From Tilletia caries (lineage: Eukaryota; Basidiomycota; Exobasidiomycetes; Tilletiales; Tilletiaceae): 64,000 nt of DNA. The stretch covers positions 434,001 to 498,000 of the forward strand of contig JALUTQ010000001.1 in NCBI GenBank assembly GCA_032718865.1, given 5' to 3'. Made by a program: the position numbers and the translations under genes. Below are positions 32,822 through 57,512 of the stretch, piece after piece; position 1 is the first letter of the stretch; each line of letters starts with the position of its first letter. The notes beneath the pieces were generated by a model that did not search any database, was not told where the DNA came from, and saw only the letters and a list, made by a program, of their open reading frames with translations.

Positions 32822-32951
32822 TACCGTACTACTTTATATCCTTCATCACGCTGTTTGCAATGTTATCCCTGCCGCCATACATAGGACGGACGTGAACTTC
32901 TCCGACTCTGAGGTTCAGACTCCCGCCCGCTTGTCTGCTACCCCCCAAGTG

Positions 32952-35900
32952 TATGGAACGCCGTTTGGGTCAGCCTTTCAGGTCGCCCAACATTTTTTCC
33001 AGGGTCGCCTACCACCAAAACCACCATCACAGCGAATCAATCCTCATCCACCGAGCATCTTCACATACACAAACACACCTGCGCACATGCGAGCATTGCG
33101 TCCTACGCCTACAGCAGCTGCGCGCGTGCTGCACCGAGCCCAGAACTTGCGTGCGCTGATCGCTGACGTCTTTCGACTTTCTTTCACCCTCTCCTCCCCA
33201 GTCCTCCTCTGCTCCTTCCGCCTGCTCTGCAAGTCACTCAGCGCGCACTACTTACTCTCTTCCTTCTCAACCTCTCCCCAGCAAACAGATACGAAACAGG
33301 ATGGATCCATTCATGTGAGTGCCCTAATCCAAGCAAACAAGTTTTCTCAATCTTGTGCTGATGCTCTTCCCCCTCTTCTTCCCCACTCTGGCACCATGAC
33401 AGAAGTCTCAGCCCGCCCAGCATTGCTGCTTCTGGCATTCATGCTCTGCTTCTGCCCGGCTGCCTTCTTTTCTCGGCTACCCTGGCCCTTGAGTCGTTGA
33501 GTGCGTCAGTGAGTGGACAGGCGGCTAGACGCTAGTTGCTCAGCGCAGGCCGAAGGGACCATGCATGACCTTGTTGACCTCCCGAACACTTCTCTTTGCT
33601 TCCTACAGATACTTTGGCCACGTCCGTACGTCTACAATGCCGTTCCTGCTCCTTCGTTGCCTCCATTCGCACTCATCGTTGGTGACATGCTCTCAGTTCT
33701 GGTATTGCTCAGGCCAGCTAGGTCCTACAAGCCTATATGTACACAACAGTCGCATAAGTGATAAGACGTAACCCACTCACTCGTTCCTTGTTCGATGATG
33801 ACATGATGGATGCGTGATAGAGTGCCAGGAAGCACAGAGCTGGGTGGCGAGGTTATCAGTCAGTGGAGTGAAGAGGTCAAGAGGATGGATGGGCTGGAGG
33901 CATCATTTCAATGTGCCGTTCTCATTTCAGTGCATGATCATGCCCGTGCATCGTTATGTGTCGCCATAGGTCGACGCGGGTGAGAGGTTGGGGGTATGCA
34001 ACCCGGGGACGAGTCTGAAGAGGGGAGGTGTAGGTGGTCAGTGACTTGGTGCAGTCCCACGCGCAGACATGAATGGTGGAGCGACAGCTTACCTGCTTTG
34101 GCCTTTGGGATCTGAAACGGCGCAAAGCACAATATACAAAAGCTGTCAGCAGAGCATCGCACCGCGTGCGCAGTTCGTTGCTGCGCGGTCGTGTGGCTGT
34201 AAGGCAGGGTGCAGCGCAAGAGAATGGTGATGAGCATTGAGCACTGTGCATGTAGGAAAGCGGGGCACTCACCTCAGGTCTAAAATGGATGGCCCTTGAA
34301 GCCTGCCGCCATGACGAGATTCGAGAGCGCGCAAAGCGCAAGCTGTAGCCGGCAAGGAGCAGGCGTGAAGATCCGAAGAGGCTGCAACAATAAGGATTGA
34401 ACAAGGTTGGAGATGACTGGCGAGAGAAGAAGTGATCAGCGATTGGTACCAGCAGTAAGCACCCAGCTGGACAGCGGCGGAGAAAGGAGAAGGGTCCGCA
34501 GAGTCGGCAGAAAAGCGCGCGCGAGACGTGCTGCAAGACAGGCGCAGACGGATAGGCGCAGCAATGGGCGTTGCGTGGGTTTGAGGATGGGTAGGGGTGA
34601 TTGGGCAGTGGTATACTTAGTAGTGGAAAGTTTGGGCGACCCTGGAAAAATGTGGGGCGACCTGAAATATGGAACGCGTATTATGGAACGCCGTTTGGGT
34701 CAGCCTTTCAGGTCGCCCCACATTTTTCCAGGGTCGCCCAAACTTTCCACTACTACTAAGTATACCACTGCCCAATCACCCCTACCCATCCTCAAACCCA
34801 CGCAACGCCTATTGCTGCGCCTATCCGTCTGCGCCTATCCGTCTGCGCCTGTCTTGCAGCACGTCTCGCGCGCGCTTTTCTGCCGACTCTGCGGACCCTT
34901 CTCCTTTCTCCGCCGCTGTCCAGCTGGGTGCTTACTGCTGGTACCAATCGCTGATCACTTCTTCTCTCGCCAGTCATCTCCAACCTTGTTCAATCCTTAT
35001 TGTTGCAGCCTCTTCGGATCTTCACGCCTGCTCCTTGCCGGCTACAGCTTGCGCTTTGCGCGCTCTCGAATCTCGTCATGGCGGCAGGCTTCAAGGGCCA
35101 TCCATTTTAGACCTGAGGTGAGTGCCCCGCTTTCCTACATGCACAGTGCTCAATGCTCATCACCATTCTCTTGCGCTGCACCCTGCCTTACAGCCACACG
35201 ACCGCGCAGCAACGAACTGCGCACGCGGTGCGATGCTCTGCTGACAGCTTTTGTATATTGTGCTTTGCGCCGTTTCAGATCCCAAAGGCCAAAGCAGGTA
35301 AGCTGTCGCTCCACCATTCATGTCTGCGCGTGGGACTGCACCAAGTCACTGACCACCTACACCTCCCCTCTTCAGACTCGTCCCCGGGTTGCATACCCCC
35401 AACCTCTCACCCGCGTCGACCTATGGCGACACATAACGATGCACGGGCATGATCATGCACTGAAATGAGAACGGCACATTGAAATGATGCCTCCAGCCCA
35501 TCCATCCTCTTGACCTCTTCACTCCACTGACTGATAACCTCGCCACCCAGCTCTGTGCTTCCTGGCACTCTATCACGCATCCATCATGTCATCATCGAAC
35601 AAGGAACGAGTGAGTGGGTTACGTCTTATCACTTATGCGACTGTTGTGTACATATAGGCTTGTAGGACCTAGCTGGCCTGAGCAATACCAGAACTGAGAG
35701 CATGTCACCAACGATGAGTGCGAATGGAGGCAACGAAGGAGCAGGAACGGCATTGTAGACGTACGGACGTGGCCAAAGTATCTGTAGGAAGCAAAGAGAA
35801 GTGTTCGGGAGGTCAACAAGGTCATGCATGGTCCCTTCGGCCTGCGCTGAGCAACTAGCGTCTAGCCGCCTGTCCACTCACTGACGCACTCAACGACTCA

Positions 35901-36439
35901 AGGGCCAGGGTAGCCGAGAAAAGAAGGCAGCCGGGCAGAAGCAGAGCATGAACGACAGAAGCAGCAATGCTGGGCGGGCTGAGACTTCTGTCATGGGAGC
36001 CAGAGTGGGGAAGAGGAGGGGGAAGAGCATCAGCACAAGATTGAGAAAACTTGTTTGCTTGGATTAGGGCACTCACATGAATGGATCCATCCTGTTTCGT
36101 ATCTGTTTGCTGGGGAGAGGTTGAGAAGGAAGAGAGTAAGTAGTGCGCGCTGAGTGGCTCGCAGAGCAGGCGGAAGGAGAAGAGGAGGACTGGGGAGGAG
36201 AGGGTGAAAGAAAGTCGAGGAGACGTCAGCGGTCAGCGCACGCAAGTTCTGGGCTCGGTGCAGCACGCGCGCAGCTGTTGTAGGCGTAGGACGTAATGCT
36301 CGCATGTGCGCAGGTGTGTTCGTGTATGTGAAGATACTCGGTGGATGAGGATTGATTCGCTGTGGTAGTGGTTTTGGTGGTAGGCGACCCTGGAAAAATG
36401 TTGGGCGACCTGAAAGGCTGACCCAAACGGCGTTCCATA
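32952..36439. repeat. Long palindrome formed by A1 and A2
   Basis: Arms 32952-34666 and 34707-36439 are inverted near-identical copies separated by a 40-bp centre that contains the first bases of C and A2. The left arm is about 1,715 bp and the right about 1,733 bp; the main length difference is a 14-bp duplication. Confidence 0.95.
34682..36439. mobile_element. Element A2, copy of A1 in opposite orientation
   Basis: Bounded by TATGGAACGCCG... and ...CGGCGTTCCATA, flanked by cgcgta at 34675-34680 and 36440-36445 (one extra t at 34681). It is an inverted near-copy of A1 (roughly 95-99 percent by eye along its length), differing by scattered substitutions and a 14-bp tandem duplication near 34820. 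It inserted at the junction of C's end and B, after B arrived. No credible coding region. Confidence 0.9.
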
Positions 36440-36443
36440 CGCG

Positions 36444-38151
36444 TATGGAACGCCGTTTGGGTCACCATCTCAAACGCAGTTTTTGAAATCGCAATCGCAA
36501 AATACAAAGGTGTCCAAGGTGCTAGAATCAGACTGTCAACCACCATTATCCTTCACACACCCCAGTCAACTCAACCCAACACAGTGCCAGACAGCTTCTA
36601 ACGCCGCTCAATAGTCCACGCATTCATCCCGAGCCAAAGATCGCTCATTTTCCGCCTCCCTGAGTTACTCGGCGGATACGAAGGAGCTCGCGGCTGACCT
36701 CTGATGCCCAGTGCTACTGACCAATTTTCCCCCCGCTGTTGCCCCCCAAGAGTCTTTCTACTCGCTTGCTGCTGTTGCTGCTATGCCTAGCTCACACTTT
36801 CGTCGTTGCATTTTGATTTATGGTGATCCTTTCTAGTCCGGCTAACGTATCTTCTTTCCATCTGCCTCGAGTAGCTATGTTCACCCTTCTGCTGTCTTTG
36901 ATACCTCCATCTTCACCACCCAAGCTTCCAGAGCTTTTCTGCACGTACGCGGCCATCATCTGCCCTCTCTCCTGCCTGCCTGCGCTGCATGCGCATCTCC
37001 GGACACCGTCGTCCCCTGTGTCTACGCGTCATGTATGCCTTTGATCAACCCGGGCAGGCTGCTAGCCTCCTCCGCTGCGAGTCACAGTGGACGCACATCG
37101 GGTACAGTCGCAGACGCCCATCGTCCTCTGTCCGTTCCTATAAGGATGGCCCGACAGATATCCGTCTCCCGAGGGGTGCGTTATCTACATATGTATATAT
37201 TTACACCGCTCCTGCCATAGCATACATGTGCTGGGGCAAACGGCAAACCACGTGGTGAAGTTATCTTATCTTATCCATCCTTATGAAGTTACTGGCAATT
37301 TAAAGCGCATTTCATATTTCCACGTGGCCCCTTCATTGGGGAGCAGCTACCATGGCCATGCCATCATATGTATGCTCGACTCTGACCAGGCGGGCTCGGA
37401 GCGCTGTTGTACCCCCTCTACTTTACACAACAGAAAGGCAGCTGCGAGCCGACAAGTCCGCTCACCTGTATCAGCGCCATGCGCATCCCCTTCGGCTGTC
37501 TCGCCATGGTCTTTGACCGTCGAAGACATCGGCCTACATCCTTCTGCTTTCTCCCGAGCATTTCCTGCCAATACTACGTGCCTCTTCCTCGCGCAGCTGC
37601 GCGCAATATTATCTGTATGCATTGGGTGGTCTATGAGCTCCAAGCAGGTGTCTTTTATCATGAATGAGAGGGTAGACGGGAGTTGAAGAGTGAGGATGGC
37701 CTGAAGAATTAGGAATAATCAGCATTCTCAGCTTCAATGTGCTGCCTCGGACTCTCAAATCAGTCCCTGCGGCCGCGAGAACCAGCACAGCGCTCAGCCA
37801 GATACATGCAGATGTGTATGAACGAAGATCTATGCCATGTTTACTTGGTGGAGAAAGAGCTGAGCTGTTGTGAAGCTCGAGAGGCAGGGAAGGTACACGA
37901 GTGCGCGGCAACGGCTCTGGAAGCTCGAGAAGACGGCTTGAGCAGCTGTGGCGCGGCGGAACAGGAAGCTGGTACCTCTGGCTCCACTTGCATCTGGGCC
38001 GAGTTGTTGCCTGAATGCTGTGTGCAGTGTGATTGAAGATCAAGCGGAAGATGGTGAGGAGTTCCATAGCTCATGCTCTGCCAACATTTCCTGCTTGCGA
38101 TTGCGATTTCAAAAACTGCGTTTGAGATGGTGACCCAAACGGCGTTCCATA
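36444..38151. mobile_element. Element B, related non-autonomous copy
   Basis: 1,708 bp with perfect inverted repeats of about 57 bp beginning TATGGAACGCCGTTTGGGTC and continuing ACCATCTCAAACGCAG. The first 21 bases equal those of A, then the sequence diverges. Duplication aacgcg: the right copy is at 38152-38157, the left copy at 34673-34678 is now separated from B by A2. B therefore inserted 5 bp inside the left terminus of C. No protein-coding frame is convincing. Confidence 0.92.
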
Positions 38152-38625
38152 AACGCGGAACCCGCCATGACGCCGAACGTCCAACACCAATCGCCGAACG
38201 ACCAACGGCCACCAGCCCACCACTCTCACTACTGAGTTCGTCGACCTCATCTACAGACTACAGCCCCCAGCGACGTCAAGATCACTGTAAGTGCCTCTCT
38301 ATCCCCGTCCGAAGCTCTGAAGTTACTGACACGGTTCTATTCTACATTTTTCTGCTTACTACAGCCTCTTCGCTGCTGCCTTCCCTCGTCCTCGCGCTCG
38401 TCCCCGGCTCGTCCCTGCTCGCCGCCCGCTCGCGCTCGCGCTCGTCCCCGGCTCGTCCCTGCTCTCGGCTCGTCCTCGCGCTCTCGCTCGTCCCCTGCTC
38501 TCGGCTCTTTTGCTCTCTCTCGACTCGGCTCTTTTGCTCGCTCTCTCTCGACCCGTCGCTCTCTCTCGACTCGTCTCTTTCGCTCGCCCTCTCTCGGCTC
38601 GGGCTCGCGCTTGTCTTCGGTCTCC
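38152..38625. repeat. Left long inverted repeat of element C
   Basis: Matches the reverse of 46863-47318 closely. The inner part is a GC-rich run of CTCG/GCTCGTCC-type short repeats with length variation between the two ends. Confidence 0.9.
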
Positions 38626-38680
38626 TTTTTGTCTTTCAGGTGCGAGTGTTCCTCTGCGCGTTCACCACACACGCGCTGCC

Positions 38681-40542
38681 ATGAATCTCACGTCATTTTA
38701 TGCATTCCCTACACAGCGTACAGCCGTATACGTGGACAATGAATCTGATGCGCTGCTGCCGGCGGAGGTTCTGATCATTTTGGAAGAGGCACGAACCGGC
38801 CTCCGCCCGTTTCGGACATTCATCGAGGATACCGAGCGCGATATAATGGTCATTCCTTCACATCTCGTGGTCTTGCAGGAGCTCATTGACGCTTTTGCGT
38901 CACTGGTCAGCGTTCTTCCGGCTCGAGAATACGATTCCACCATGCGTCAAATGATTTTCCTTCGTGAGCAGCTGGACACCCTGGAACATTCAATGCCCCA
39001 GAGACCGACCGAGCCACTATGGCAACGCACCATGAGCGGACGACTGCGCGTATACATCGACAGCGACACACTCTGCGAGCTGGTCGAAAAGGAATCCACC
39101 GACGATGTCATTGCCATTATGCTGGGAACCTCATTGCGGACGGTTGAACGGCGTCGCGCAGAGCTAGGGCTTCGGAAAAGGGGAGGACCTGCGGTTAGCG
39201 ATGATGAACTTTATGCTGTGAGAATGATAACGCTCCTGGAACGGTCTGCATATGATACACCGCTAACAGACCTCTCTCTCTCGTTTTACGCTGCAATTAC
39301 GTATACAGGCCATCCGCTCCACGTACGCCTTGGGCTTTGAGGCCGGTGAACGAGGGATGCGTGGAGCCCTTCGGTCTATCGGGCTCAGAGTCAGCCGAGA
39401 GCGTCTGCGCGTGGCTCTGCGGGAGGTCGACCCCCAGAATTTGCAAGCCCGCTGGGCCAAAACAATTCGGAGACGAGAATATTACGTGCCTTTCGTGAAC
39501 AGCCTATGGCACATTGACGGGCACCACAAGTTAATAAAATACAAGATCGTCATTCACGGTGGCGTCGACGGTAAAAGCAGAACGGTGACCTTTATGCAGG
39601 CTTCTCCGAACAACCGGGCAGAGACGGTCACTGCCTGTTTCCTCGCGGCAACTCAACAATGGGGCTGGCCCAGTCGCGTCAGAGCGGATCATGGCGGAGA
39701 AAATCTGGGGGTTAAGGGCAAGATGGAGGAAGCGCGTGGTAAGTAGAACACTGAGCAACGTTGTGCCCATTCTGCACCGCTGTCTTATTACATTCCATCT
39801 GTCTACGTCTGCTGCTTGGCTGCTCAGGTGTGCGTAGGGGATCATTCATACAAGGTCCTTCCACGCGAAACCAACGCATCGAACGCATGTGGGTGGACGT
39901 GCAGCGATGGACGACAGCGAAATACAAAGCCATCTTCACGCAGCTCGAATCCGATGGGCTGCTCGATGTCAGCTCCTCAGTGCACCTCTGGTGTCTGCAC
40001 CTCGTCTTCCTTCCTCAATTGAACGATGCCCTTGCGCACTTTCAAGATTCGTGGAACCGCCACCCGATGAGGACCGGTCAGAAAAACTGGAGCCCGGAGC
40101 AGATGCACACCGCGGGTGAGTATATGAATACGGTTCATGTGAATTGCGAAGCACGAAACAAGTCTGAATTGCCACTTATCGGACTTTCTTTCCAGGCGTT
40201 CTGGAAGCAGAGAGGAAGGGCTTTGATTTGCGGCGGAGGCCTGAGATGTTGGAGGAGGTGGATGCTTCGGACGATATGAGGGTGCATGCTCTACGCGACT
40301 TTGCAGATTATGGAGCAGACGATGGGAGAGAAGAGCGTGTGCGGAGAGAGGACGATCCTCATGTCGCGGTTGACCCAGTCGAACGTGATCTTCCAACCCC
40401 GCTTCTGGATCCAGCCGTTCGGAGTTGGATTGAGAGTCAGGTTCCTTCAACCTGGCCCCCTGAGGAAGATTTGGGCTTGAACAGGTACTCACGGGCGCTG
40501 CAGCTGGCGTCACAAGTACTAGAGGAATCAGGATGGATGTAA
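38681..40542 (+). CDS. Integrase-core D,D,E transposase of element C
   Basis: Four exons (38681-39217, 39309-39738, 39828-40115, 40196-40542) keep frame and give 533 residues with no stop or shift. The N-terminal half contains helix-turn-helix-like DNA-binding segments (MLGTSLRTVERRRAELGLRK). The catalytic core has the first Asp in NSLWHIDGHHKL, the second in VRADHGGEN and the Glu in RNQRIERMWVD, the arrangement of the rve/integrase fold. This protein type is frequent in agaric fungi and fish as an integrase core domain protein. The ATG at 38681 follows the long inverted repeat and an acceptor-like tract. It is expected to cut and join the TATGGAACGC ends. The gene looks functional in sequence. 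Confidence 0.87.
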
Positions 40543-40778
40543 TGGTCAGAATCATGAATTTTGTCAACCAGACTGGGGTCTTCAAAGCCACTCACTCTAC
40601 GGCCCTACTTGTTCTTGGCGATAAGGCCTGCCTCCTTGCACACGCCGCATCGCCAAGCCTTTCCCTTACGAGGCATCTCTTGCCTCATACCATCCTTTGG
40701 GATGACGCTAAGGCAGTCGGAATGATACTGTAGTTGATACAAGATTGTCAGCAACAAGCTCATTGATATTTTGCAGTC

Positions 40779-43700
40779 CTATACTGCTCGAGACCTTGAA
40801 GCTTGAACCATACGCACCCACTGCTCGCAAGAAGGGACGCCGCAGCAGACCCAGAGAATTTCCTGACGGAGACGAGTAAAGATGAATGTAACATGATCAG
40901 CGCGATGTGGATCCCTGTCACCAAGAGAAGAAACAAATTACTCACTGCAGCCTTCCCCTTACTTGTGTATTGATTCTCGTCCTCCGACCATGGTTCCGGT
41001 GTCTCCTTCTTCCCGCACACAGGGCAAACCTGCTTCGTCTCATCTTTCTCCCTTTCTTTCTCGCCGTCTCCTTCGTTCTCGACATCCCCAGCTGCGACAG
41101 CAGCAGGAAGAGCACGCCGGAGGCGACTCGTACTCTCCTTCGCGCTGGAGGCCTTACGCTGTAGAAGAGCAGAAATATCATGAGTCAGCTTCATGTAGTG
41201 CGCGCCAGCGCGCTTGAGTCTTATGCCGTTCATTACCTTCTTGGGCGCCTGTTTTTCAGGAGACATGGTAGGGACCAGAGAAGGGGTCTCCCCAATTTCC
41301 TCATCGCTGGAGAGGATTTCAATCTGCCAGTAAATCAAGGATTCATAACCAGTTAGCGTTGCTGTATTGGAGTTGGAGGCTTTGCAGATCCGCTCACTCA
41401 CTGCATCGTCGATAGTGTTGCTGCTCTTTCCTTTCTCAACCTTCACATTTTCCATCTTCACGCGAGCGAGACGACATTCGTGACCGGCCAAAAACCGTGG
41501 AGGCATGACGGCGGCACAGGTGCCGCACTGAGATGTGCCCGAAGAAGCACGGGGCGTGGTGGTGGCACGTCCTGAGCTTGGGCCGTGGCCGACCTGAGAA
41601 ACTTTGACCGTGTCAAATGCCGCCTGTAGTGGTGGCGCTCCTGCTGGCAGCGGCGGAAAGATGGACTGGGGAGGGTCTCGTCGCATGGAGACTATGTATG
41701 CCTGCTTCCTTGCGTAAATGGACTGCAAAGCGTTTCCATCAGGATAAAATGCGTCGGACGACGCTCCAGCGTCGGCCACATCAATGCCCTGCTCATCCAA
41801 AGAAAAGTAAGACAGGCGGTGCCCCGTTCCGCTCCCATTAGTTGCGCACCATCTGTTAAGCAATCGCAGGTTCAATGATCAGCTCATCAATCATCCGCAG
41901 AATCGCAGCAGTCGGCGAGTATAAGAAGACTGGGGCAGGCGAGGGATCATGTTCATCTCACCGGAATCCAAATTGAGTCAAATCATCCTGATAGGGGCGC
42001 AGCGAGGCGTGCAGGCACTCCCACACGTCGTCGCTGGTGGACAACGTTGTGATGTTTGGAGCCACAATCACACACTTCCACTGAGCCAGCACTTCGTGAA
42101 AGTTGGGCCCGGCGACTCGCGCTCCCACTTTGTTCCACGGAAGGTATTAGATCTGAAAAGAGCGGCAGGATCGCGTCAGAACGGAGAAGGCTCAATCAAA
42201 AAAGAGATACTTACGCTTTCCTTGTGGAGCTTGATCTTCGTGGCCTCCGGCGGTTGATGGCGGGCCGCCATGGCTGTGAGAGAAGAGTCATGCGAGGGCC
42301 CAGCGGCGGCAGCAGCAGCAGCGCGCACCGGGCCGGCTTGGAGACCGAGACCGCGGAGTCGCTGCGCTGCATGGTGGGCGGGCGCAGAAAGAAGAGAGGC
42401 AGAGTCTGGGGCGACCGTTCTTGCTGTGTACGCCTGCGTGAGACCCGGACGCGCCGGAATAGTTGACACTGCGGACAGGGAAGACGTTGATGAGAATGGC
42501 AGCACGCTGTTCATCTTGATTAGGGCCTGTACAGCTGCAGCGTCACGCGTGACGCTGCTAATTGAATTTGCGTCATGTGATAAAGTTGTCACAGTTGCGT
42601 CATGACTTGTACAGCAGACTCTCCGTGACGCAAAAACTTGCGTCATGATAACTTTTTCCTAGTGAAAATTTGCGTCCAGCTCAGACCTGGACGCAGTCTG
42701 ATTTGACGCACCGTCGGAGATTCAATTCGTTCGCAGCGTCTCATGCCCAGGATCCTCAGATTTTTTCTCTTCCTCTCACATGTACCATCATCCACGCTCG
42801 TCGCAATGTCTTCCTCTTCTTCTGAAAGCGCTGCTCAAGAGACGCAGACTCAAAGTCAAGGTGAGGCCCTTTCGCAGGCGCCGCTCGCTTCCGCCACCCA
42901 GGCGGGTCAGCGTAAGGAGAACTGCTTCTGGGCTTCGACAGAGGACGAGAAGCTTCTTGATGTCCTCGAAGAAGGCAAACAGCAGGGTAAGGCTAGTGGA
43001 GGAGGCTTCAAAGTAGGTATCTCTCTCGCCTTTGTTTTTCGTCTCTTTGCTCGATCCCGAGCCCTCTGGGCTCTGAGCCCTGGATGGGGTCCCTTGACTG
43101 GGCCACGTCTCTGGGCTATCTTAAGAACTGCTGCTGATCAACTCCCAATTTTTATGTTACATGTTCCTCAGCCCGAGCTCTGGGTTAGGGTCCTTGAAGA
43201 AATCGAGCCTTTGCACGAGAAGGGTCGAAAAAAGGCCCTTGCCGATGTGAAGAACCATTACAGGAACGTGAGTAGGCTCTCCCTTCCTTCCTTCTATCTT
43301 TCCTTTTTCTTCCTTGCCCGTTGTGCTCAGCCCGATGATCCTGCAATGACATCTCTCGTTGTATTCCAGCTTAAGGCCCAGTACAAGGAAGTGAAAGAGC
43401 TGGTTGATATGAGTGGGTTTGGATGGGATGAGGATAAGGGCGTGGCCACGGCCGACGATGCGGTGTGGGATGACCTGGTGAAAGTGAGTAGACTCCGATC
43501 CCTTTCCTTCCCTGGAATTTGAGGTGAGAATGGAGCAGGGCCGCATGGGCATGGGTGGAAATACGATGGAGAATCAGCTTCGTTCCTGTCTGGACTCTGG
43601 CTGGATGTGTTTGGAATGTGGACCCTGATGCTCTGACAGGTTCATATCAGTGGTGCGATTGATGATCTGACCCCTTGCTCTCTCTCTGTCTGAAATTCTA

Positions 43701-46700
43701 TTTGTTCTAGCGTCGCCCCGAGCTCAAGAAGTGGAGACACAAGTCGTTTCCCTTCTACACACAGCTGGACAGCCTCAACTCGAAGTCTACAGCCACAGGT
43801 GCCCTTTCTCGGGACGTTGGTGCAGAGGGAGAGGCCAGCAGCGACTCCGAAAACGACTCTGAGAAGGGGGACAAGGAAGGCAGTGACGATGAGAATGATG
43901 TGGGTAGCTGTGGTTATGGTGATTTCATCTTTCTCCTTCTCTCATGGTGACTGGTGAACGTTGCCAATGCTGAGAATTGATTGAATCTGAGCCTTCCTAT
44001 CTTCTATGAACATTGCAGGGTCAAATTCCTGCCTCCCGCAAGCGCAAGCGCCCCCTCCGGCGTTGGTGCCCTGGCGGAGATCGCCACTGCGCTGCGCGGG
44101 ATGAGCAACCAGGACGAGGGACTGGGAGAGGCCATTACCGAGCTTCTGGATCGTGACAGCGAGGCATTTGAGGTCGACGAGCTTGCGTCTCTTGGACTCG
44201 CGCTCGCCGACAAGCCTCGCCTTGCCTCTGTGTACAAATCGTTTGCAGAGAGACCTGATCTTCGTCAGGGCTTCCTGCGTAAGATCCTGGACTCGGACGC
44301 TTGATATCACTTCCTTCTTCGTTTCCCTCCATCACCACTCATCATGTCCTCGTCCTTTCATTCAAATACTATGTCCCTATTGATGTTTCAAATCCATTGC
44401 TTCAAATTTGGGTTCGGTACTTCTGCCACATTTTGTTAGAGATACAGTTGCGGTAAATAGCCGCCCGACGTGCCTCGGCCGTCTGAGTATGCTGATCCCC
44501 TCGCTGCTGACCCTGATCCCGCCGCTCCTGTCCCTGAGAGTGAGCGTCGAGGTCTTCTGTTGGGTCGTGCTCTCGGATGACGTTGTGGAGAAGGGCCAGG
44601 GCCGGGAAGATGTCTGCCTGGGTCTGGATGTCAAAGTTACATCCTGCCACGAGCACCCGAAAGCGGGCTTGCAGTACCCCAAACGTACGCTCCACCACAT
44701 TGCGAGCTCCTGCGTGACGTCTATTATAAAGTTCTTTGGCATTGCGAGGTCTGAGAGAAGAGAAGACAGTCAGGACTAGGTTCGTGCGACGAGGTATGGA
44801 GTATGGACATGGGACCATGGGGGGTAGAGAATCAAGGATGTGTACTCACCGCTGCATTCCTGTACCAAACTCTTTGAGATGGTACCGCACGCCTCGATAG
44901 GGAATCAAAAGTCTTTGGCTCAGGGGAAACCCCGCGTCCCCCAGAAGTCGTTCCTTGCCTCTGAGGCGGAGACCAGATCCGAGTGCCTTTTTCCATAGAA
45001 AGCTGTCTGACGTGCTGCCCTCCCATCCGCTCAGAATGTAATGATCTTCATGTCGAAGTCGCATGCGGCAAGCACGTTGAAAGACGTGTAGCCTTTTCGA
45101 TTCCAGAATCGATCGCGCATATGAACGGGAGCATGGGCAGGGACGTGAGACCCATCGATCGCGCCGATAACGGTCTTGAAGAACGGGTATAGAGCTGGGT
45201 CCTCTTTGATACGCGTGGGAACTTCCTGGAGACGGGACGGAAGGCTGATGTATTTCTGATATAGCTGTGGATCGAGCAGGGCACGAATGACAATCTTGAA
45301 TGATCTGCGATGTTCAAAAAGACCGTCAATGAAAGTAATCATGAGTTCATCGTAACCTCCAGTCTCTACTGACCTTCCTATCGTCACAGGGCTATGTCCA
45401 AACACGTCTGCTGCTTGTCGACATGAAGTAGCAAAGCGACTCATGTAAAGAAAGATTCACAGTCGCTCCGTTGCAGTGATATTTCTGGAGTTTGACAGCT
45501 TCCCAGTACCCTTGAGAAGTCGTAGAAGCTCTTGGAACGTCTCTGGTCGCATCCCCAGCATTTCCCGTCCAGTAGATCCCCGTGCGGTGAGCCATTGCCT
45601 CACTTTCGCGTATCCATGGCCGTATCGAGCGTGTCCTGCTTCTTTGATCAAGAATCGATTGGCGTATAAAGCAGCAGCAACGCCTGCAAGTGTTGCCGCT
45701 TTGTGTCTGTACGATCGCCCTTTCCTGTCGTAAACCATATTCCTTCCTTCCTGTGTGTAAAGAAGGGTTATTTTATGAGATCTCAGCAGCAGGTGTCGCA
45801 GCTGTAAGGGATGATGGCTCACAAGCAGAGAATCTGTGGGGTCGTGGGCTGGGGCTCGGGGAAGGAGGTCGACCAACTGTCGAGAAGCGTAGAGTCGAGA
45901 CTCAAGCGCGTGCGGGCGTGCGGCGTCGGGCGCAACCCTCGGCAGAGGAGGAGCGTGGGCGTGGGCGGTGGGACTGTGGGAGACGGGGCTGGTAGGGAGC
46001 GCGCACCTGAAGAGAAGAGTCAGAAGATGATGAGGGGCTGTAAGTCACTGCGCGGGAGAGAAATGAGGGAGTTAGCAGAGACGTACGCTGTGAGGAGACT
46101 GGTAGGAAGTGGCCTGGTGGTGAGCCGATGAACGCTGGTGAGTGCATCCTGTCAGGTGGTCAGCTGTACGGGCTCGTGGCTTGTTTTTGACTTTTGCGTC
46201 ACATTTCAGATGATTCCTATTTTTGTGTTTTGTGATATCTTTCAGCGTCATAGGACGGTGCAGCTGTACAGGCCCTTAATGACAGTCATTATATCACACA
46301 CTCACTGTAGGTGGAGCTCGGCGGAGCTGGCACTGGATGCGTCAGTCGTTCATGCAGCTGAGTGCGCAGCGTGGTGTTCTCCGTTCTCAGACTCCGATAA
46401 TCTTCTCTCAACAACTCATAGTCGCGTCGGGAAACTAGCTGTTGTGCGTTGTACAATCCCAGTGCGAAACATAAGCCTGCATTAGTATAGGTTCTTTCCA
46501 GTCCAAGAGAGGCCAAGAGGGACATGGTGTTGCAGAACATCCGAATCTGAAGCTCACCACTTTCGGGGAATCGGCAAGGTCCGCTGCTGGTGCGGTCGAC
46601 CGTGCTGTAGAGCATGAAAACAATCAGTCGCGTCGTCAGTAGTAGGCATGCCGCATGAGAGGAAGATTGAGCTGCGCAAGACTCACGAGGTGAATGATGG

Positions 46701-46711
46701 TTGAAGGAATG
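40779..46711 (-). CDS. Accessory gene of element C, zinc-finger-like, with Harbinger in an intron
   Basis: Function unknown. On the minus strand exons can be chained from about 46550 (coiled-coil segment RDYELLREDYRSLRTENTTL, ending at a GTGAGT donor near 46304) across the Harbinger element to 42472 downward (STIPARPGLTQAY), then 42153-41965 (VIVAPNITTLSTSDDVWECL), 41850-41410, 41330-40946 and 40779-40862. The protein has CGTC...HEC and CPVCGKK, and the last exon adds WVCCGVPSCEQW, so the C-terminus resembles a PHD-type zinc finger. One junction puts an in-frame TAA at 42147-42149 directly after the acceptor, so this copy may be broken or my splice wrong. The 5' end is uncertain (46711 or 46613). 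Confidence 0.55.
42806..44304 (+). CDS. Harbinger Myb/SANT-like DNA-binding protein
   Basis: Partner protein that recruits the nuclease to the transposon ends in this superfamily. Exons 42806-43012, 43172-43267, 43370-43483, 43711-43899 and from 44019 on. The trihelix is seen as FWASTEDEKLLDVLEEGK, ELWVRVLEEIEPLHEKG and NHYRNLKAQYKEVKEL with the expected Trp/aromatic spacing, then RPELKKWRHKSFPFY, an acidic Ser stretch and a basic RKRKRP. The last exon changes frame in a run of five C at about 44050: with one base fewer it continues SGVGALAEIATALRGM to ILDSDA at 44304. So either a one-base insertion disables the tail or it is an assembly error. ATG 42806 was preferred to 42743. Confidence 0.8.
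44402..45738 (-). pseudogene. Harbinger DDE nuclease (transposase), broken
   Basis: HARBI1-like nuclease that excises the element. From ATG 45738: an N-terminal region up to ERL, an in-frame TGA at 45457-45459 where relatives continue into IFLY, an intron with GTCAGT donor, then the catalytic part: first Asp in VIGAIDGSHVPA, RKGYTSFNVLAACDFDM, LSGWEGSTSDSFLW, second Asp in LLGDAGFPLS, and after the last intron (PRNAKELYN) the Glu in NVVERTFGVLQARF. A frameshift near 45046 separates CDFDM from LSGWEGS. The TGA could come from a CGA by one C-to-T change. With one stop and one shift this copy should be inactive. Confidence 0.88.
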
Positions 46712-46862
46712 TTCCATTGGTTGAATTTGGATGAGGAATGGTTCGGGTGGAAACGGACAACGGTGGACAAGGCGAAAGACAAGGGCGAGCAAAGAGAGGG
46801 AGTGCGAGGCAGTGAGTGGCCGCGCAGAACCGAGCGTGAGCGCGAGCCGCTGGAATGAGGGA

Positions 46863-47318
46863 GGAGACCGAAGACAAGCGCGAGCCCGAGCCGAGAGAGG
46901 GCGAGCGAAAGAGACGAGTCGAGAGAGAGCGACGGGTCGAGAGAGAGCGAGCAAAAGAGCCGAGTCGAGAGAGAGCGAAAAAGCCGAGAGCAGGGACGAG
47001 CGCGAGGACGAGCCGAGAGCAGGGACGAGCCGGGGACGAGCCGAGAGCAGGGACGAGCCGGGGACGAGCGCGAGGACGAGGGAAGGCAGCAGCGAAGAGG
47101 CTGTAGTAAGCAGAAGAATGTAGAATAGAACCGTGTCAGCAACTTCAGAGCTTCGGACGGGGATAGAGAGGCACTTACAGTGATCTTGACGTCGCTGGGG
47201 GCTGTAGTCTGTAGATGAGGTCGACGAACTCAGTAGTGAGAGTGGTGGGCTGGTGGCCGTTGGTCGTTCGGCGATTGGTGTTGGACGTTCGGCGTCATGG
47301 CGGGTTCCGCGTTCCATA
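46863..47318. repeat. Right long inverted repeat of element C
   Basis: Inverted partner of 38152-38625; ends in CGCGTTCCATA, followed by the duplicated ctgaaa of element A1. Confidence 0.9.
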
Positions 47319-47348
47319 CTGAAAGGCTGACCCAAACGGCGTTCCATA

Positions 47349-48631
47349 CAAGTGATGATCTTCTCGAGTTTAGATCGCTGAAAGCTATGTGTGAACCGTG
47401 CATGCAAGAAGCTATGGAACGCCGTTCCCTTCACCTTTTTCATTTTCATTTCGGTTTCCATTTCCATTTTGATCTTCACCACCACGATACCTTCCACGCA
47501 CACGGCACACCAGTCACTCGTCCACATCTGTGGGTATTGGCTGACTTTCCGCATGCTGACACTGATCAGCAGCTGCTAACATACTTCCTCGTTCCTCGTC
47601 TTCTTTCCCCTCCCATCCCATCTTCTTCTCGCAGACTGCAGCTGCCGCTGCTATCACCACCGCTGCCGCTGCCGCTGCACCACCGCTGCCGCTGCCATCA
47701 TTGCTCCCGCTGCCGCTGCTGCCATCACTGCTGCTGCTGCCGCTGCCGCTGCCGCTGCCAGCACCGTCGTTTTTTGCCAGACCACTCTCAGCAGCGGCGC
47801 GGGGCGCCGCCGTCGTCCGTTACACGCTCATCAGTACGTCTCACGCGATGTATGGCAGTAAACCTGTGCCGCGTACATACAAACAGCTGACGGACTTCTT
47901 CCCTTGTGCAATTCAGACTTGTACCACTCAGAATCTATATAGTATATCTACCCAATGGACACGTCGTCAATATCGCCTGCGGAGGCCATCACTCTGGGTG
48001 CTCTTGCAACCCAATCAATGGAGCCATTTCAACAATTTCTGGAAACAACGGGAGAGACTGGAGTCCGGACTCTGGATTCTGGAATGAATGAAAGATGAAG
48101 ATGGATGAGGAGACTCACGAGGCGGCGTTTTTGTCTGACATTGTCAGCCAGTGCAACAATGTACTTGCGCAGCAGAAGAGTCAGCGGAGAACTAAGAAGG
48201 CGGCGGGTGGGTGTGGTGTTGCCGTGTTGGTGCCTTGGTGATGGGAACGAAGACGAACGGGAGAGGTGGTGAGTGGTGACAAGGTCGATGTCAAGCAGGC
48301 ATGGCTACCCCAGAGGACCTAAATAGGACAGACAGATGAAGCATCTGGATGTACCTAAAGGGCTGCATCTGGAGTGGCGCAAACCTGTTTCAGCGGTTTA
48401 AGAAGGTTGATCTCGCTCTATGGAAATTAAAACTCTTGCCATTCCACCGCACCTGTACGCAGCACGTGACTCTGGCAGCTGTGGCAATCCATCGGGCTGC
48501 CTTGACATCCACGCCATGCTCTATCACGTGATCTTGCACATGGATTGCATCGGGGCGATCACCACGTGGTTGATATCTTATCTCTCCTTATCTATCTTGC
48601 CTTTACATATGCCCTCACGTATTCTGCATAG
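47349..48631. other. Right flank of the nest with a solo TIR end and a microsatellite
   Basis: After the caagtg duplication, TATGGAACGCCGTT occurs again at 47413-47426, a fifth terminus of the same family without a partner in the window. A GCTGCC/CTGCCG microsatellite spans about 47634-47765. Frames in this stretch are short and not conserved; no gene is called. Confidence 0.5.
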
Positions 48632-48808
48632 CAACACCCTCTCCTATCGGATCGAGACGGGCGACCGTTCACGAACAGCCAGCTGTTGAACGATATTTCC
48701 GGAGGAAAGGCGCTGCTGGCGTTCGCTCGGGCGACGCTCGCATACGAGGCAACCACACACTCAGGGCGAGATGAGGTAGATCTCGATGAGGTGCTGGAGA
48801 AGGAATAA
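48632..48808 (+). pseudogene. Orphan terminal exon of an unknown gene
   Basis: After a TAG acceptor at 48629-48631 the frame reads QHPLLSDRDGRPFTNSQLL and then GGKALLAFARATLAYEATT, DEVDLDEVLEKE and TAA. It has coding-like composition but no ATG and no upstream exon that I can connect, the upstream DNA being transposon-derived. It may be the 3' remnant of a host gene whose 5' part was displaced. Not recognised as any family. Confidence 0.35.
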
Positions 48809-49421
48809 TCAACACACAGCAAACACTATACGACCACGAGCACCCAACCAACAACCACACACCCAGGCTCCGTCTCCGAACCCCATCCAACTCCAGGCCC
48901 CCTCACTCGTCCGTCATCTCTCTTTCCATTTCTCTTCCAACAACCTCCTCGCATGGTGACGCCCGCTCTGGGGTACTGGACTCCGCCGGTTGATCAGCGA
49001 TAGGAGCGACGAGACTCGAGCCCGTACTGCGCTCAAAAGGCTACAGCGCTGCTGTTTTATCCTTCATTGTACTTGATTAGGACACCATTGTGGTGTGCGT
49101 GTCGTCTCGACGCGCGCCGTTTTGCTGCGCCACTTGCGCGGTTCTGGCCAATAGATTTTCTCTCTCTCTCTCACCCTGCCTCCGCTTTTGCACGACACAC
49201 TTTTCCTCGCTCTCATCCCCACCCTTCTTGATCTCATCATCCGAGATCCCAGGAGTGGCTCACTCAGCGTGCTGCTTGATGTTACCGTAGCTCGATTCTA
49301 AGCTGTACTTGATCAACTACGCCGGCATGTTCCATTCATGTCTCCTGAATCCTGATTGTAATAACCATATAAGATAAAAATTTCCATGAGACATCCCACA
49401 CTGCGTCAAGAATGTGCAGTA
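48809..49421. other. Intergenic, nothing recognised
   Basis: About 0.6 kb of AT-richer sequence before the stop of the next minus-strand gene. No repeat or coding signal stands out. Confidence 0.5.
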
Positions 49422-51203
49422 TTAGACGCGCTTTAACACCAGGGTGTTCATGTTCAGCGCCTCTTGAACCGCCTGTACCTCGCTGCCTTTCCACCTTGAA
49501 GTGTTCCGAAGACTTCCCGCCGTAATCGTGAAAGTCGAGCTTGATGTTGTTGTACCCTGGACCGTCACTTTAACGTCCCCGTCCAACATCTTGTTTGCCT
49601 CGATTGGCCAGCCCTGTACGCACAGGCCTGTGTCATTGATCCTCTTGAAAACGCCCTTGTAAATCATACTCTTCAGTTGTTTGGTGTCCTTCATCCATTC
49701 AGATTCCTTCTCCTTGCTGATCGAGCGCATGCCATCGTTGATCCATTTGATGAGGTTCAGTACCAACGTTTTCGATGCCGCTTTGGAGGGTATTTCCGTT
49801 GGTACTTTCGTGACCTTCTCCACCACCTTGACGGCCTCTCCTTCGCCCAGGGCGTTCAACCGTTCGGTGGCGATGACCCATGCGGGAGGAGGATTATTCT
49901 TTGTCGCTGCACCGAACAGGTTGGCGAATTTGGCTACAGTCCCAGTAGCGTTTAAGTTTTTGACGCATCCGTCGAAGAGGTCCTCGCTGTGCTCAGAGGC
50001 CACCACCGCGGCCTTCACATCGGGGTCTGGATGTGCCAGAACAGCGAATCCGCAGACCCCGTAATCCTGCTCCATGTCCCACATTAGTTTCGTTAGGACT
50101 TTGTGGGCCTGATTGTAGTTTGCCATTCGCTCCTCGTGCGGCGCCGTTACCAGGTGTAGCGGCCACCAGTCCTCGAACTCCTTGCGAACTATTGCCGATG
50201 CGTTCGCGTAGAACTTTGAGATTCGTGCGGAGTGACTTGCTCCTGGCGTCGATACCGCCGGATTGGCCGCCTCCCAATCCGTCAAACGCTCAGGATGGAA
50301 TTTGATCCACTTCTCCAGCTTGTTCCATGTGTTGACTCCGCGTGGGATAGGCCTGTCCAAGTCCAGGCTCCGATGGTTCGATTCCATGCTGAGTCCCACC
50401 TCTGAGGTTGCAGTGCTCGTAATGTGGTCGATCCGAGCCCGTGCATCGTCACCTTGACCCTCTTCCTCTCCCACCTCCTCTCCTTCGCCAGCCACTGTCT
50501 CATTTTCGTCCTGAGTCACGCGTCTACGCTTGGTGGCAGCAGACGAAGCCTGACGCCGCAATTCCATCTGTTCCTCGGCGAATTGACCTCCGTTCCGCTG
50601 CCAATCCAGAGTACCCGGATAAGACGAGCTTGCGCGAGTATCCTGGTCTAAAAGGTGCGTCGCATGTGCTTGAGGTGCAAGATTGCCTGCAAGTTCCATC
50701 ATAGGTGTCGATGGGGCTTGCCCGGACGGAGGCGGTTGGGCCGGGTTGTAGTGATTGAAGCGATTGTTGAATCCAGTCGCGCCATGCGGGTCCATGGAGG
50801 ATCCGGGAAGAACGTGGCCTCCGCCGTACTGCCCGTCCATGTTCGCCGGACCGTGAGAGTGTCTTCCATATCCGTAGCTGTGCTGAGAATGCTGACGCTG
50901 ATGCTGGTGCTGACTTTGTATCGGCGAAGGCTGACCCATACGTTGGGCGTTCGGCGCCTGCTGACCATGTCCATGCTCCGCTGCCAGACCCTGCCCGTTA
51001 TGATGGCCAGAGCCCGGGATCCATCTTGCTCCTGCGCCGCTTGCGAAGTTCATAGCGGTCGTACGTGATATGATTGGCGATCGCAGGCTGGTGTTCGTGG
51101 CAGCCAGATGTTTTGATGCGAAGTCTTTGCTCCCGATCTCACCGTCAAACATGCACAAACCATCGTCGGCATCATCGAGGATTTCGATCTCTCCGTCCCC
51201 CAT
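49422..51203 (-). CDS. Uncharacterised 593-residue protein
   Basis: I do not recognise this protein. A single uninterrupted frame from ATG 51203 to the stop at 49422, which for this genome supports a real gene or a mobile-element gene. Residues 1-230 are disordered and rich in His, Gln, Gly and Pro (SQHQHQRQHSQHSYGYG). A basic patch TKRRRV is followed by an acidic run. The C-terminal half is globular: TWNKLEKWIKFHPERLTDW, FYANASAIVRKEFEDWW, KVLTKLMWDMEQDYGVCGF, then Lys-rich helices and a last Ser/Thr beta-like stretch. It is divergent with the SHQ1-like gene. Its neighbourhood of transposons makes a mobile origin possible, but no transposase motif is visible. Confidence 0.65.
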   Translation of the reverse strand: MGDGEIEILDDADDGLCMFDGEIGSKDFASKHLAATNTSLRSPIISRTTAMNFASGAGARWIPGSGHHNGQGLAAEHGHGQQAPNAQRMGQPSPIQSQHQHQRQHSQHSYGYGRHSHGPANMDGQYGGGHVLPGSSMDPHGATGFNNRFNHYNPAQPPPSGQAPSTPMMELAGNLAPQAHATHLLDQDTRASSSYPGTLDWQRNGGQFAEEQMELRRQASSAATKRRRVTQDENETVAGEGEEVGEEEGQGDDARARIDHITSTATSEVGLSMESNHRSLDLDRPIPRGVNTWNKLEKWIKFHPERLTDWEAANPAVSTPGASHSARISKFYANASAIVRKEFEDWWPLHLVTAPHEERMANYNQAHKVLTKLMWDMEQDYGVCGFAVLAHPDPDVKAAVVASEHSEDLFDGCVKNLNATGTVAKFANLFGAATKNNPPPAWVIATERLNALGEGEAVKVVEKVTKVPTEIPSKAASKTLVLNLIKWINDGMRSISKEKESEWMKDTKQLKSMIYKGVFKRINDTGLCVQGWPIEANKMLDGDVKVTVQGTTTSSSTFTITAGSLRNTSRWKGSEVQAVQEALNMNTLVLKRV

Positions 51204-51587
51204 ATTGTCCCTTCAGCTGTCGCCACGAACGTTGCCCGCATCCTCCGCCCGCGACTTCTGCAACCTGGACATCATCATGACGGCCGAACAGCCAATGCCA
51301 ATCGCGGGAATGTGCCGCCGGGAGTTCCGACGAAGGCACTCGTCCGCTCAGCGAACGAGGACACGAGGTCACATCCAAGCATGGCTGTTTCGTCTCCTAT
51401 ACGTCCGTGTATGGTTCTCCCTCGGAAACTGGACGTGCCGCGTCCCTCACTCTGCCTTCTTCCTTTTAGATCGTTACCCACCCCCCTTCTCTCTCTTTCA
51501 AAAGGTCCAGCGGTCAAAGTCGAGCGCGTACCCCTGGAAGTTGCGCAACACTGAGGACGGCAGTCCCCTCCGTCCGGTCTTAGAATC
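51204..51587. promoter_or_regulatory. Divergent promoter, unknown gene/SHQ1-like
   Basis: 384 bp between the two start codons. No TATA box recognised. Confidence 0.4.
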
Positions 51588-52882
51588 ATGGCCACGTCTC
51601 CGAGCGCGACCACGACCGTGCCCTCGTACAATCTCAGCCAAGACGACCATACCATCCAGGTCCGCATTCATTGTCCTCTCGCACCGGTCGGTATCCTTCA
51701 GCACGCTCAACCCTCAGTGTACCCCCTTACTGACAGATCCAGTCTGATATCCGCATTAACAGCCAAACTCTAAGCCTAACGTGGTCTCCGACGGCCAGAT
51801 CTTTGGGTTCACCTGCCCGAAGATGGGCCGGTCTCCCTACTACCTCCCGCTTTACTTGCCCATGCCCGTCCACTCGCCCACTCTGGTCCGCGACCCGGCC
51901 AGGAGCGCACTGATCGTCACCCTCCGCAAACCTCAGCCTGGCGTGCACATCCCGGGGCCCTCGCTCCTCCAGCCTTCACTCCACCCAGACCTGCCCTTCA
52001 TCCCCGAAATAATGGACAGCGGCGCAAAAATCCCTGTCAGCTCGCCGGACACCCTCGACAACAGGCAAAGCTACCTCGGAATCGACTGATGCGAGCCAGA
52101 TGAACAGTCGAGCCGCGAATTTTGCCGCATTGTTCCCTCCCATGGGTACCCACTCAGGCGCATTTGTCGAAAGTGCAGGAAGTGAGAAATTAGACACCCT
52201 TCACAACACTGGACACGGCAGGTTGACCTCTCCTTTTGTTTTTCTCACAGCTGAAGCCAGCATAACCTCATCAGCACTGTCCGCAGCTGGCGATGATGAC
52301 GATGATCAGTCCAGCGCCGCCGCCAAAGATGCCGGGGTCAGGGACGCGATCGCGGCCGCTGCTCGCGTTGCTTCCTCGCCCTCTCCCGGCAAGATCTACC
52401 CATACGGCTTCTGCGGCGCATTCACTGGTCCCTTCCCCCCTTCATCATCAAACATCAGCTTGGGCGCTGCCTCCGTCACTGGCAGCGCAGGCCGCACAGT
52501 GGAGAGCGCCAGCGGAAACGCGTCCCCCCATCCCGTCCGTAGCAGGGTACACGAACTTCAGCAAGACGTCCGGCGGCTTGCGTGGGGACGTCGGAGGAAG
52601 GTTGCTCAGCTATGTGAAGAGGAGAAGTGGGACGAGGGAAGGTATCTGGACGGTTACGTGGATGAGTTTGAAGAGGTGTCGGAAATTCTCGCTTGGGTGC
52701 CAGAGGACCGACCCGGCCCTTCGGCCGCCTACCTCGCCCTCACCAACCAGTCCGAGGCGGAGGAAGCCCCGTCACTCAAGCCGTTCGACAAGACGGCGCG
52801 CGAGGCTCAACTAGCTGCGCTCCAGTTCCTCGTTGCGTACGGCTACGACTGGCGAACGACGCAGGGCGAGCACAGTGCTTGA
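51588..52882 (+). CDS. SHQ1: SHQ1-like box H/ACA snoRNP assembly factor
   Basis: Shq1 chaperones the pseudouridine synthase Cbf5 during H/ACA snoRNP assembly. The start at 51588 reads PSYNLSQDDHTIQ, the first strand of the CS-like domain; an intron with an unusual donor precedes PNVVSDGQIFGFTC, then SPYYLPLYLP, SALIVTLRKPQPGVHIPG and PFIPEIMDSG, as in Shq1 N-domains. The C-terminal domain has YPYGFCGAFTGPF and EEEKWDEGRYLDGYVDEF followed by ILAWVP, matching the Shq1-specific region. Between them the frame must change: a run of five A at about 52026-52030 with one base removed links SGAK to SLSARRTPSTTG and on to NSRAANFAALF. Otherwise an unseen intron is needed. Identity is likely, structure uncertain. 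Confidence 0.65.
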
Positions 52883-53779
52883 GTGTACTCTGTCGGAGCT
52901 TGGTCACCCAGTGTCCCATTGAACCCGCTTCCACTGTGGTCCCGCGGGCGACGTCCCCGAGTGGGAGTATCAGCACACCGGCCATCATCACTTCATCCGA
53001 CGACCTTTCTAGCGGCGCCATCCCGCGTGCTGTCAGTCCTGCCTCGAGCATAACGGGCACATCCGGTTTTGCGCACCAGCCACTGGACGGCGCCATGTTT
53101 GCGAACACGGTGATGTCCGGTACGCCCATCTTGCGGGGTGCGTCCCCTGATCCTGTTGGTTTGTTTGCCAGTACCAGCGTGGGCGCGAATGCTCCCATTT
53201 CCATTGCGGGCACGGCGGGGATCGGTGCGGGTGGGTTCGGATCGAGCGGCGCTATACAAGTGCGACGCGAGCTCCCTACACCAGGGAAATTCATCCCCAG
53301 CAGCCGATTCCGATGCTCATTCCAAGCTTCGTTGGCGAACGTCCCGACTCCCGCCCAAACGTAACCTGTTGCGGTATCTACCAGCAATGTGCGATGTTCA
53401 ACTTCCGCGGATACTCGGCCTTAAGAAGAAGATGATTATTCGGACGTCCGCGCAATCTTTCATGCACACATCTCCCAATCATAGCCACACGCGACGTGTA
53501 GCACTTGCAAGGCTCCTTGGCTTCATTTCGATGCGCTTGTGTTGTCATGCTTGTACGATATCCGCGCACCGACTGCAATCTCACTTTTCTCTTTCACAGA
53601 TCTAACCTTCCCCTCGTCACCTCGTCGTTCGAGTCCACCATCTTTCTGACATCTCTGGGCGATTTGACGCGGCCAACATATCAGATCAGCGGTAGGCGTC
53701 GAAACCATGGTAAGTACACACATCTATGGCAGTTGGTTGGAATACGAGAACTGATGACTCCTGTTTCCTGGCCACGATG
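52883..53779. other. Unassigned region
   Basis: Overlapping low-complexity frames of about 200 codons occur on both strands (Ser/Thr/Ala/Gly-rich on plus), with no recognised domain. I cannot tell whether either is coding. Confidence 0.4.
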
Positions 53780-57350: not shown

Positions 57351-57512
57351 GTAGGCTATTCTGCAGGCTACGTGCCCAAATCCCCTCGCAAAGGAAGGGA
57401 TAGCCTACATTATAGCTTACAACACTCTTGCGATAGCCTACAGATTAGCCTGCACATCCCCTCAGCCTGTCGTCTTTCCATCACCCTCTGCAAGATAGCC
57501 TACAGAGTAGCC
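57351..57512. repeat. Array of TAGCCT(A/G)C motifs upstream of the 57685 gene
   Basis: Eight copies of TAGCCTAC, TAGCCTGC or their reverse (GTAGGCTA, GCAGGCTA) occur in about 160 bp, several as pairs about 12 bp apart. The array ends roughly 75 bp before a TATA box. It may be a binding-site cluster or the end of an uncharacterised short element. Confidence 0.6.

What the first reader, a model, noticed from the sequence alone, without database searches (positions are those of the whole stretch)
32946..47354. Base-resolved nest of at least five transposons
Every boundary can be read with its own target duplication: A1 caagtg, C ctgaaa, B aacgcg, A2 cgcgta, Harbinger TTA. Rejoining each duplicated site restores the host element, which fixes the order A1, then C, then B, then A2, with Harbinger entering C separately. 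Such complete reconstruction inside one 14.4-kb block is rare.
Basis: seen in the sequence. Interest (0 to 1): 0.9.

Follow-up and report, generated by a model that had tools for sequence, protein, structure and literature searches.

The report
Nested fungal transposons joined at ends
In a wheat bunt fungus, four related jumping elements and one unrelated one sit inside each other in an order that can be read base by base, and the related ones landed almost exactly at each other's ends, which may reflect a preference worth testing.

Summary
Other genomic copies match the predicted empty sites: A1 without C, 64/64 nt in eight copies; C's left end, 51/51 nt in two; C without Harbinger, 79/80 nt. 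The order A1, C, B, A2 stands. Genome-wide, 8 of 101 gaps between non-partner neighbouring IS3EU ends are under 100 bp and none is 100-1000 bp; random placement expects 0.03-0.05 insertions within 70 bp. These 8 lie at four loci; a fifth was found later. Target-motif scores explain this only partly, and one Harbinger also ends 68 bp from an IS3EU end, so self-directed insertion is plausible but unproven. A1 and A2 share an identical 1.1-kb tract, best read as gene conversion.

The parts
32946..32951 (.). left copy of A1 target duplication caagtg (right copy 47349-47354)
32952..34667 (+). element A1, left part (IS3EU-type, about 1.7 kb without C; taken as non-autonomous, no transposase gene recognised)
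34662..34667 (.). left copy of C target duplication ctgaaa, 25-30 bp inside A1's right end (right copy 47319-47324)
34668..34678 (+). first 11 bp of element C (TATGGAACGCG), cut off by B and A2
34673..34678 (.). left copy of B target duplication aacgcg, bases 6-11 of C (right copy 38152-38157)
34675..34681 (.). left copy of A2 target duplication cgcgtat, 7 bp, spanning the C/B boundary (right copy 36440-36446)
34682..36439 (-). element A2 (same family as A1, opposite orientation)
36444..38151 (+). element B (IS3EU-type, taken as non-autonomous, 57-bp terminal inverted repeats)
38152..42522 (+). element C, middle part, with long terminal repeat and transposase gene
38681..40542 (+). transposase gene region of C (exon limits estimated by eye); PF24764 rva_4 integrase-type DDE domain at about 39480-39740 and 39815-40129
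   Evidence: E 3.7e-33 and 1.9e-30
40760..41875 (-). open frame of C's second, opposite-strand gene; no Pfam family at E<=1; its relative in L071 finds four proteins, all Tilletia
42523..46275 (.). PIF/Harbinger element, TIR GGGCCTGTACAGCTG, TTA duplication (42520-42522, 46276-46278), Myb/SANT gene and DDE_Tnp_4 gene
46276..47318 (+). element C, right part with right terminal repeat
47319..47348 (+). element A1, last 30 bp (first six are the duplicated ctgaaa)
47349..47354 (.). right copy of A1 target duplication caagtg
47413..64000 (+). start of a sixth IS3EU-type element, D (G000 C1:481413-507418, running past the window end), duplication agaagc on both sides
33438..34538 (+). tract of A1 without any difference from A2 (about 34852-35952), with shared private changes

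Best explanation
Four successive insertions of one transposon superfamily, IS3EU, plus one PIF/Harbinger, by ordinary DDE-type insertion with staggered cuts of 6 or 7 bp (3 bp for Harbinger). A1 landed in host DNA. C, which carries a transposase gene, landed 25-30 bp inside A1's right end. B landed 6-11 bp inside C's left end. A2 then landed across the C/B boundary. Harbinger entered C's interior at an undated time. Shown: junctions, order, superfamily-level features, and concentration of IS3EU insertions at IS3EU ends. Inferred: that transposase bound to a resident end holds the incoming element close by and so directs it there (about 45%), and that A1 and A2 were afterwards homogenised by gene conversion between inverted arms (about 80%).
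For: Junctions and duplications. Empty-site matches in other copies: A1 without C 64/64 in 8 copies; C left end 51/51 in L071 and at both ends of L072; C without Harbinger 79/80 in L071 and 76/80 in L072; B left end 39/40 in L022, L029 and L047. Shared ends, 6- or 7-bp duplications in 56 of 71 pairs, transposase domain in C, 82 PF24764 matches genome-wide, 81 over the cut-off, exon by exon. End proximity: 8 of 101 non-partner neighbour gaps <100 bp, 0 at 100-1000 bp, 5 at 1-10 kb, two of these five inside this nest. Random placement of 123 elements gives a mean of 0.028 insertions within 70 bp with elements as points and 0.052 with two ends each, at most 2 in 20,000 runs either way. Other loci: C5, where D-type and Y elements have duplications gcccaa and tgacat 6-11 and 15-20 bp outside X's end; C40, duplication AAAGTG 8-13 bp outside an end; L030, duplication CGTTTG at bases 11-16 of the outer terminal repeat. 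Of six self-targeted sites scored, three have ordinary target-motif scores, and the A terminal repeat averages at background.
Against: One Harbinger (C27:204037-207792) also ends 68 bp from an IS3EU end, itself expected only about 0.02 times by chance, so the end bias may not be IS3EU-specific. Half of the 8 close gaps are in this one window, which prompted the test. The other three of six scored sites do fit the target motif well (88th-99th percentile). The C4 case (L020) has one right end for two starts, and its outer duplications differ at one base. 15 of 71 pairs lack an exact duplication, three of them by a single mismatch. No tree of the transposase was built.
Confidence: 0.85

Rival explanations
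1. Ordinary chance nesting: elements pile up in tolerated DNA between genes and the end positions are coincidence.
For: The block begins shortly after a TBC-domain gene, so it lies in intergenic DNA already holding transposons; nests are common in fungal genomes (general knowledge).
Against: Regional tolerance should also fill the 100-1000 bp bin, which holds 0 of 101 gaps against 8 under 100 bp. Counting five insertions in the outer 50 bp of a resident (C, B, A2, L020 tentative, L030) against at most three interior ones gives P about 3e-7 if uniform (rough and post hoc).
Confidence: 0.12
2. Target-sequence preference: terminal repeats simply contain good target motifs.
For: The 6-bp sites show a palindromic bias (C at 1, G at 6), and the L030-inner, E and B sites score at the 99th, 92nd and 88th percentile; the C terminal repeat averages slightly above background, -1.76 against -2.23.
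Against: C into A1, D into C5 and Y into C5 score at the 46th-55th percentile; the A terminal repeat averages at background, -2.25. C5 and C40 insertions lie outside the resident element.
Confidence: 0.15
3. Open DNA at transposon ends attracts any transposon, not only IS3EU.
For: A Harbinger end lies 68 bp from an IS3EU end on C27, expected about 0.02 times by chance.
Against: It is the only one of 48 Harbinger-type end matches within 1 kb of a listed IS3EU end, and no two Harbinger ends lie within 300 bp of each other. Harbinger in this window entered C's interior, not its end.
Confidence: 0.25
4. Assembly artefact or recombination made the apparent nest.
For: A1 and A2 form a near-perfect inverted repeat with a 14-bp spacer, a difficult structure to assemble.
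Against: Five separate duplications fit insertion and the empty sites match; the matching published assembly was built from about 317x Nanopore reads (passages of PMC10684912).
Confidence: 0.03

Closest known systems
IS3EU (IS3EU/GingerRoot) DNA transposons
   Same: TA..TA ends, TAYGG..CCRTA in rusts, 6-bp duplications, terminal repeats over 30 bp, integrase-type DDE transposase (PMC12730594, PMC10045372, passages read)
   Different: 8 of 71 duplications are 7 bp; the second gene of C shows no Pfam alpha-kinase, unlike the TET-bearing rust families; end clustering is not mentioned in the passages read
Styx of Zymoseptoria (IS3EU-derived)
   Same: Fungal wheat pathogen host, transposase traced to IS3EU, 6-bp duplication setting and solo terminal repeats mentioned (PMC10853768, passages)
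   Different: The word 'nested' does not occur in the main text held
Bacterial IS30 / IS911 (IS3 family) inverted-repeat targeting
   Same: Elements inserting beside their own ends, a second kind of target choice (PMC9333248, passages)
   Different: There the reaction abuts ends into an IR-IR junction; here the resolved cases have normal duplications and lie inside the repeat or a few to 64 bp outside it, and none of the 8 close pairs is directly abutted
Fusarium oxysporum Helitron self-insertion; Drosophila P{lacW} self-insertion; plant LTR autoinsertion
   Same: Elements inserting into their own kind, in one Helitron case 2 bp from an end (PMC5148889, PMC4744444, PMC6911290, passages)
   Different: Other element classes; nested plant LTR elements favour the 3'UTR of the resident, not its ends
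PIF/Harbinger
   Same: TTA duplication, Myb/SANT protein plus DDE_Tnp_4 transposase
   Different: nothing notable seen

Membership tests
IS3EU | TA..TA termini (TAYGG..CCRTA in fungi) | tested here: met
   TATGGAACG..CGTTCCATA on A1, A2, B, C and D
IS3EU | 6-bp target duplication | tested here: met
   48 of 71 pairs 6 bp, 8 of 71 7 bp, 15 of 71 neither; in the nest A1, B and C 6 bp, A2 7 bp
IS3EU | terminal inverted repeats longer than 30 bp | tested here: met
   B 57 bp; A about 58 bp; C several hundred bp
IS3EU | integrase-type DDE transposase | tested here: met
   PF24764 rva_4 in C; A-type-ended elements L026, L033, L064 and L067 also overlap PF24764 matches. The genome-wide PF24764 search lists no match inside A1, A2 or B
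IS3EU | transposase groups with IS3EU/GingerRoot in a tree | not tested
   no Repbase reference sequences used
IS3EU | alpha-kinase gene opposite the transposase (reported for TET-bearing families) | tested here: inconclusive
   PF02816 finds nothing in the genome, but the control genomes rang nowhere either
PIF/Harbinger | 3-bp TTA duplication | tested here: met
PIF/Harbinger | DDE_Tnp_4-type transposase and Myb/SANT protein | tested here: met
   PF13359 6.3e-08, PF12776 2.9e-08
IS30/IS911-style IR targeting | directly joined IR-IR junction at the targeted end | tested here: not met
   0 of 8 close pairs abut; B, C, A2, D-type (C5), Y and E carry ordinary 6-7 bp duplications

The most novel reading that the evidence does not exclude
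IS3EU transposons in this fungus home to the ends of their own kind: new copies are steered to within about 60 bp of a resident IS3EU end, inside or outside, by end-bound transposase. This would be a eukaryotic counterpart of bacterial IS30/IS911 end targeting but with ordinary target duplications, and would build end-to-end arrays and nests while sparing genes.
Probability: 0.42. Interest if true: 0.7.

Novelty: new member of a known kind. Interest (0 to 1): 0.52.

Why it matters
A nest whose every intermediate is predicted gives a relative clock for one transposon superfamily. The repeat table of the matching T. caries paper (PMC10684912, passage) lists 283 DNA transposons covering 43 kb and no IS3EU, while the 87 paired elements here span 395 kb in union, nested foreign DNA included, or 294 kb counting only the 80 under 12 kb. 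If end-directed insertion is real, it links eukaryotic IS3EU to a target choice reported for bacterial IS30 and IS911, and suggests how a compact genome can absorb many copies.

Tried and rejected
Alpha-kinase search gave nothing and is uninformative because its control was silent. The IS30/IS911 mechanism as such was rejected because no close pair is abutted and the resolved cases have normal duplications. Target-motif explanation judged insufficient, not excluded (six sites scored of nine close cases; A2, A1/D and L020 were not scored). 'A2 is simply a copy of A1' was set aside: A1 was already split by C before A2 arrived, and their identity is patchy. One-mismatch end matches inside elements were not treated as ends, except L030 where both ends and a duplication fit. 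L062 (a 7-bp gcttgtg on both sides if its end is five bases further out) and L078 were left unresolved. A paper search for 'rva_4' was useless (the listed papers are about unrelated subjects). No paper in the library holds both Tilletia and IS3EU. My first random-placement test treated elements as points; a two-ended version about doubles the expectation and changes nothing.
Full report
Observation. The end motif TATGGAACGCSG occurs nine times in the window at <=1 mismatch, against 0.27 expected. Reading the junctions gives A1 32952-47348 (caagtg), C 34668-47318 (ctgaaa), B ending 38151 (aacgcg), A2 34682-36439 (cgcgtat, 7 bp) and Harbinger 42523-46275 (TTA).

Empty sites. A1 without C matches 64/64 nt in eight other copies. 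C's left end without B and A2 matches 51/51 nt in L071 and at both ends of L072. C without Harbinger matches 79/80 in L071 and 76/80 in L072. B's left end matches 39/40 in L022, L029 and L047. Since C's duplication comes from A1, B's from C, and A2's spans C and B, the order A1, C, B, A2 is fixed. Harbinger's time of entry relative to B and A2 is not. The empty site of A1 itself in host DNA was not tested.

What the elements are. A1, A2, B and C share their first ten end bases and have 6-bp (A2: 7-bp) duplications. C carries a gene with PF24764 rva_4 (E 3.7e-33 and 1.9e-30; weak PF00665 rve, 2.7e-4, below its cut-off). The fungal IS3EU description (6-bp duplications, repeats over 30 bp, TAYGG..CCRTA; PMC12730594 section 3.1.3, passage read; TA..TA, usually 6 bp, PMC10045372, passage) fits all four. 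A-type ends also bound longer elements that overlap PF24764 matches (L026, L033, L064, L067), so A is plausibly a deletion derivative of such elements (inference). C's second gene on the opposite strand has no Pfam match, and its relative in L071 finds four proteins, all Tilletia.

Host. A transposase frame from L036 is 93% identical to a T. laevis protein and the TBC-domain gene next to the nest is 99% identical to a T. controversa protein. Contig C7 is 2,689,501 bp and C36 is 1,798,756 bp, equal to the largest contig and N50 of T. caries TC1_MSG (PMC10684912, abstract and passages). The paper gives 38.18 Mb in 46 contigs; G000 has 38.10 Mb in 40. Its repeat table, as seen in the passage, lists 283 DNA transposons covering 43 kb and no IS3EU. 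Another study of these species reports larger repeat fractions, 7.8-13.7% (PMC9172201, passages). T. caries is a wheat pathogen; nothing studied here concerns virulence.

End clustering. Ends listed give 210 ends; they pair into 87 elements with 36 ends unpaired, some of which are likely chance matches. The listing was cut at its limit, so ends on the last contig may be missing, although several were added. Of 101 neighbouring gaps that are not an element's own two ends, 8 are under 100 bp (5 to 65), 0 are 100-1000 bp, 5 are 1-10 kb (two of them inside this nest), 16 are 10-50 kb and 72 are longer. Random placement gives a mean of 0.028 insertions within 70 bp with elements as points and 0.052 with two ends each, never more than 2 in 20,000 runs. 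The 8 lie at four loci: this window (4 gaps), C5 (2), C40 (1) and C4 (1). At C5, read across the duplications, X's end is followed by gggga, the D-type duplication gcccaa, gga, then Y's duplication tgacat. At C40 the duplication AAAGTG lies 8-13 bp beyond an A-type end. A fifth locus, found by a relaxed scan and so not in the 8, is L030: an element with TATGGAGCG ends and duplication CGTTTG sits at bases 11-16 of the outer terminal repeat.

Is it targeting? The palindromic target bias (C at 1, G at 6; 37 training sites) does not clearly single out terminal repeats: of six self-targeted sites scored, three lie at the 46th-55th percentile and three at the 88th-99th; the A repeat averages at background and the C repeat slightly above. 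That leaves proximity to an end as the better account. The control with Harbinger ends (48 matches at <=1 mismatch) includes one Harbinger 68 bp from an IS3EU start on C27, expected about 0.02 times, which speaks for a general openness of such places. The clustering is therefore well supported, the self-directed mechanism only moderately. It resembles bacterial IS30/IS911 end targeting (PMC9333248, passages) in outcome but not in the kind of junction.

A1 and A2. Against 13 other A copies, one of them (L011) only 79% identical, A1 and A2 differ at 18 columns in A1 bases 1-486 and again after base 1588, but at none in 487-1587, where they share a deletion of about 228 bp, a 1-bp deletion and a substitution absent from all 13 (Fisher P 4.5e-10 for 18 of 486 against 0 of 1101). 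One further shared private base lies at 374, outside the tract. Gene conversion between the inverted arms is the simplest reading; a shared private ancestor followed by conversion from other copies is not excluded.

Prior work. Library searches for IS3EU with transposon, Tilletia with IS3EU (none), IS911 and end insertion, nested transposon or own terminal inverted repeat, preferential or self-insertion and IS3EU with nesting or site preference showed, in the listings and passages that I saw, no report of IS3EU inserting at its own ends. Listings were capped, and most subscription papers are not held.

Noticed in passing
L105 119-197 (G000 C34:1325818-1325896): A 79-bp IS3EU element, almost nothing but its two terminal repeats, with duplication CGTCTG: perhaps a minimal mobilised unit.
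   Followed up: partly
window 47413-64000 and beyond (G000 C1:481413-507418): Element D spans 26 kb between matching ends with duplication agaagc; its interior was not studied.
   Followed up: partly
window 46279-46330 and 42480-42522: By eye the Harbinger may sit in an intron of C's second gene (GTGAGT on the minus strand upstream); not tested.
   Followed up: no
L030 229-1396: An IS3EU-like element with variant ends TATGGAGCG inserted at bases 11-16 of another's terminal repeat, duplication CGTTTG.
   Followed up: yes
L020 210-257: The first 47 bp of a terminal repeat stand twice, head to tail, perhaps a self-insertion later collapsed by recombination.
   Followed up: partly
L062 92-97: Doubled TATGG at one end, with gcttgtg on both sides if the end is taken five bases further out.
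   Followed up: no
G000 C27:207792 and 207860: A Harbinger end 68 bp from an IS3EU start.
   Followed up: partly
window 32952-36439: A1 and A2 make a near-perfect inverted repeat of about 1.7-kb arms with a 14-bp spacer, a structure usually thought unstable.
   Followed up: partly
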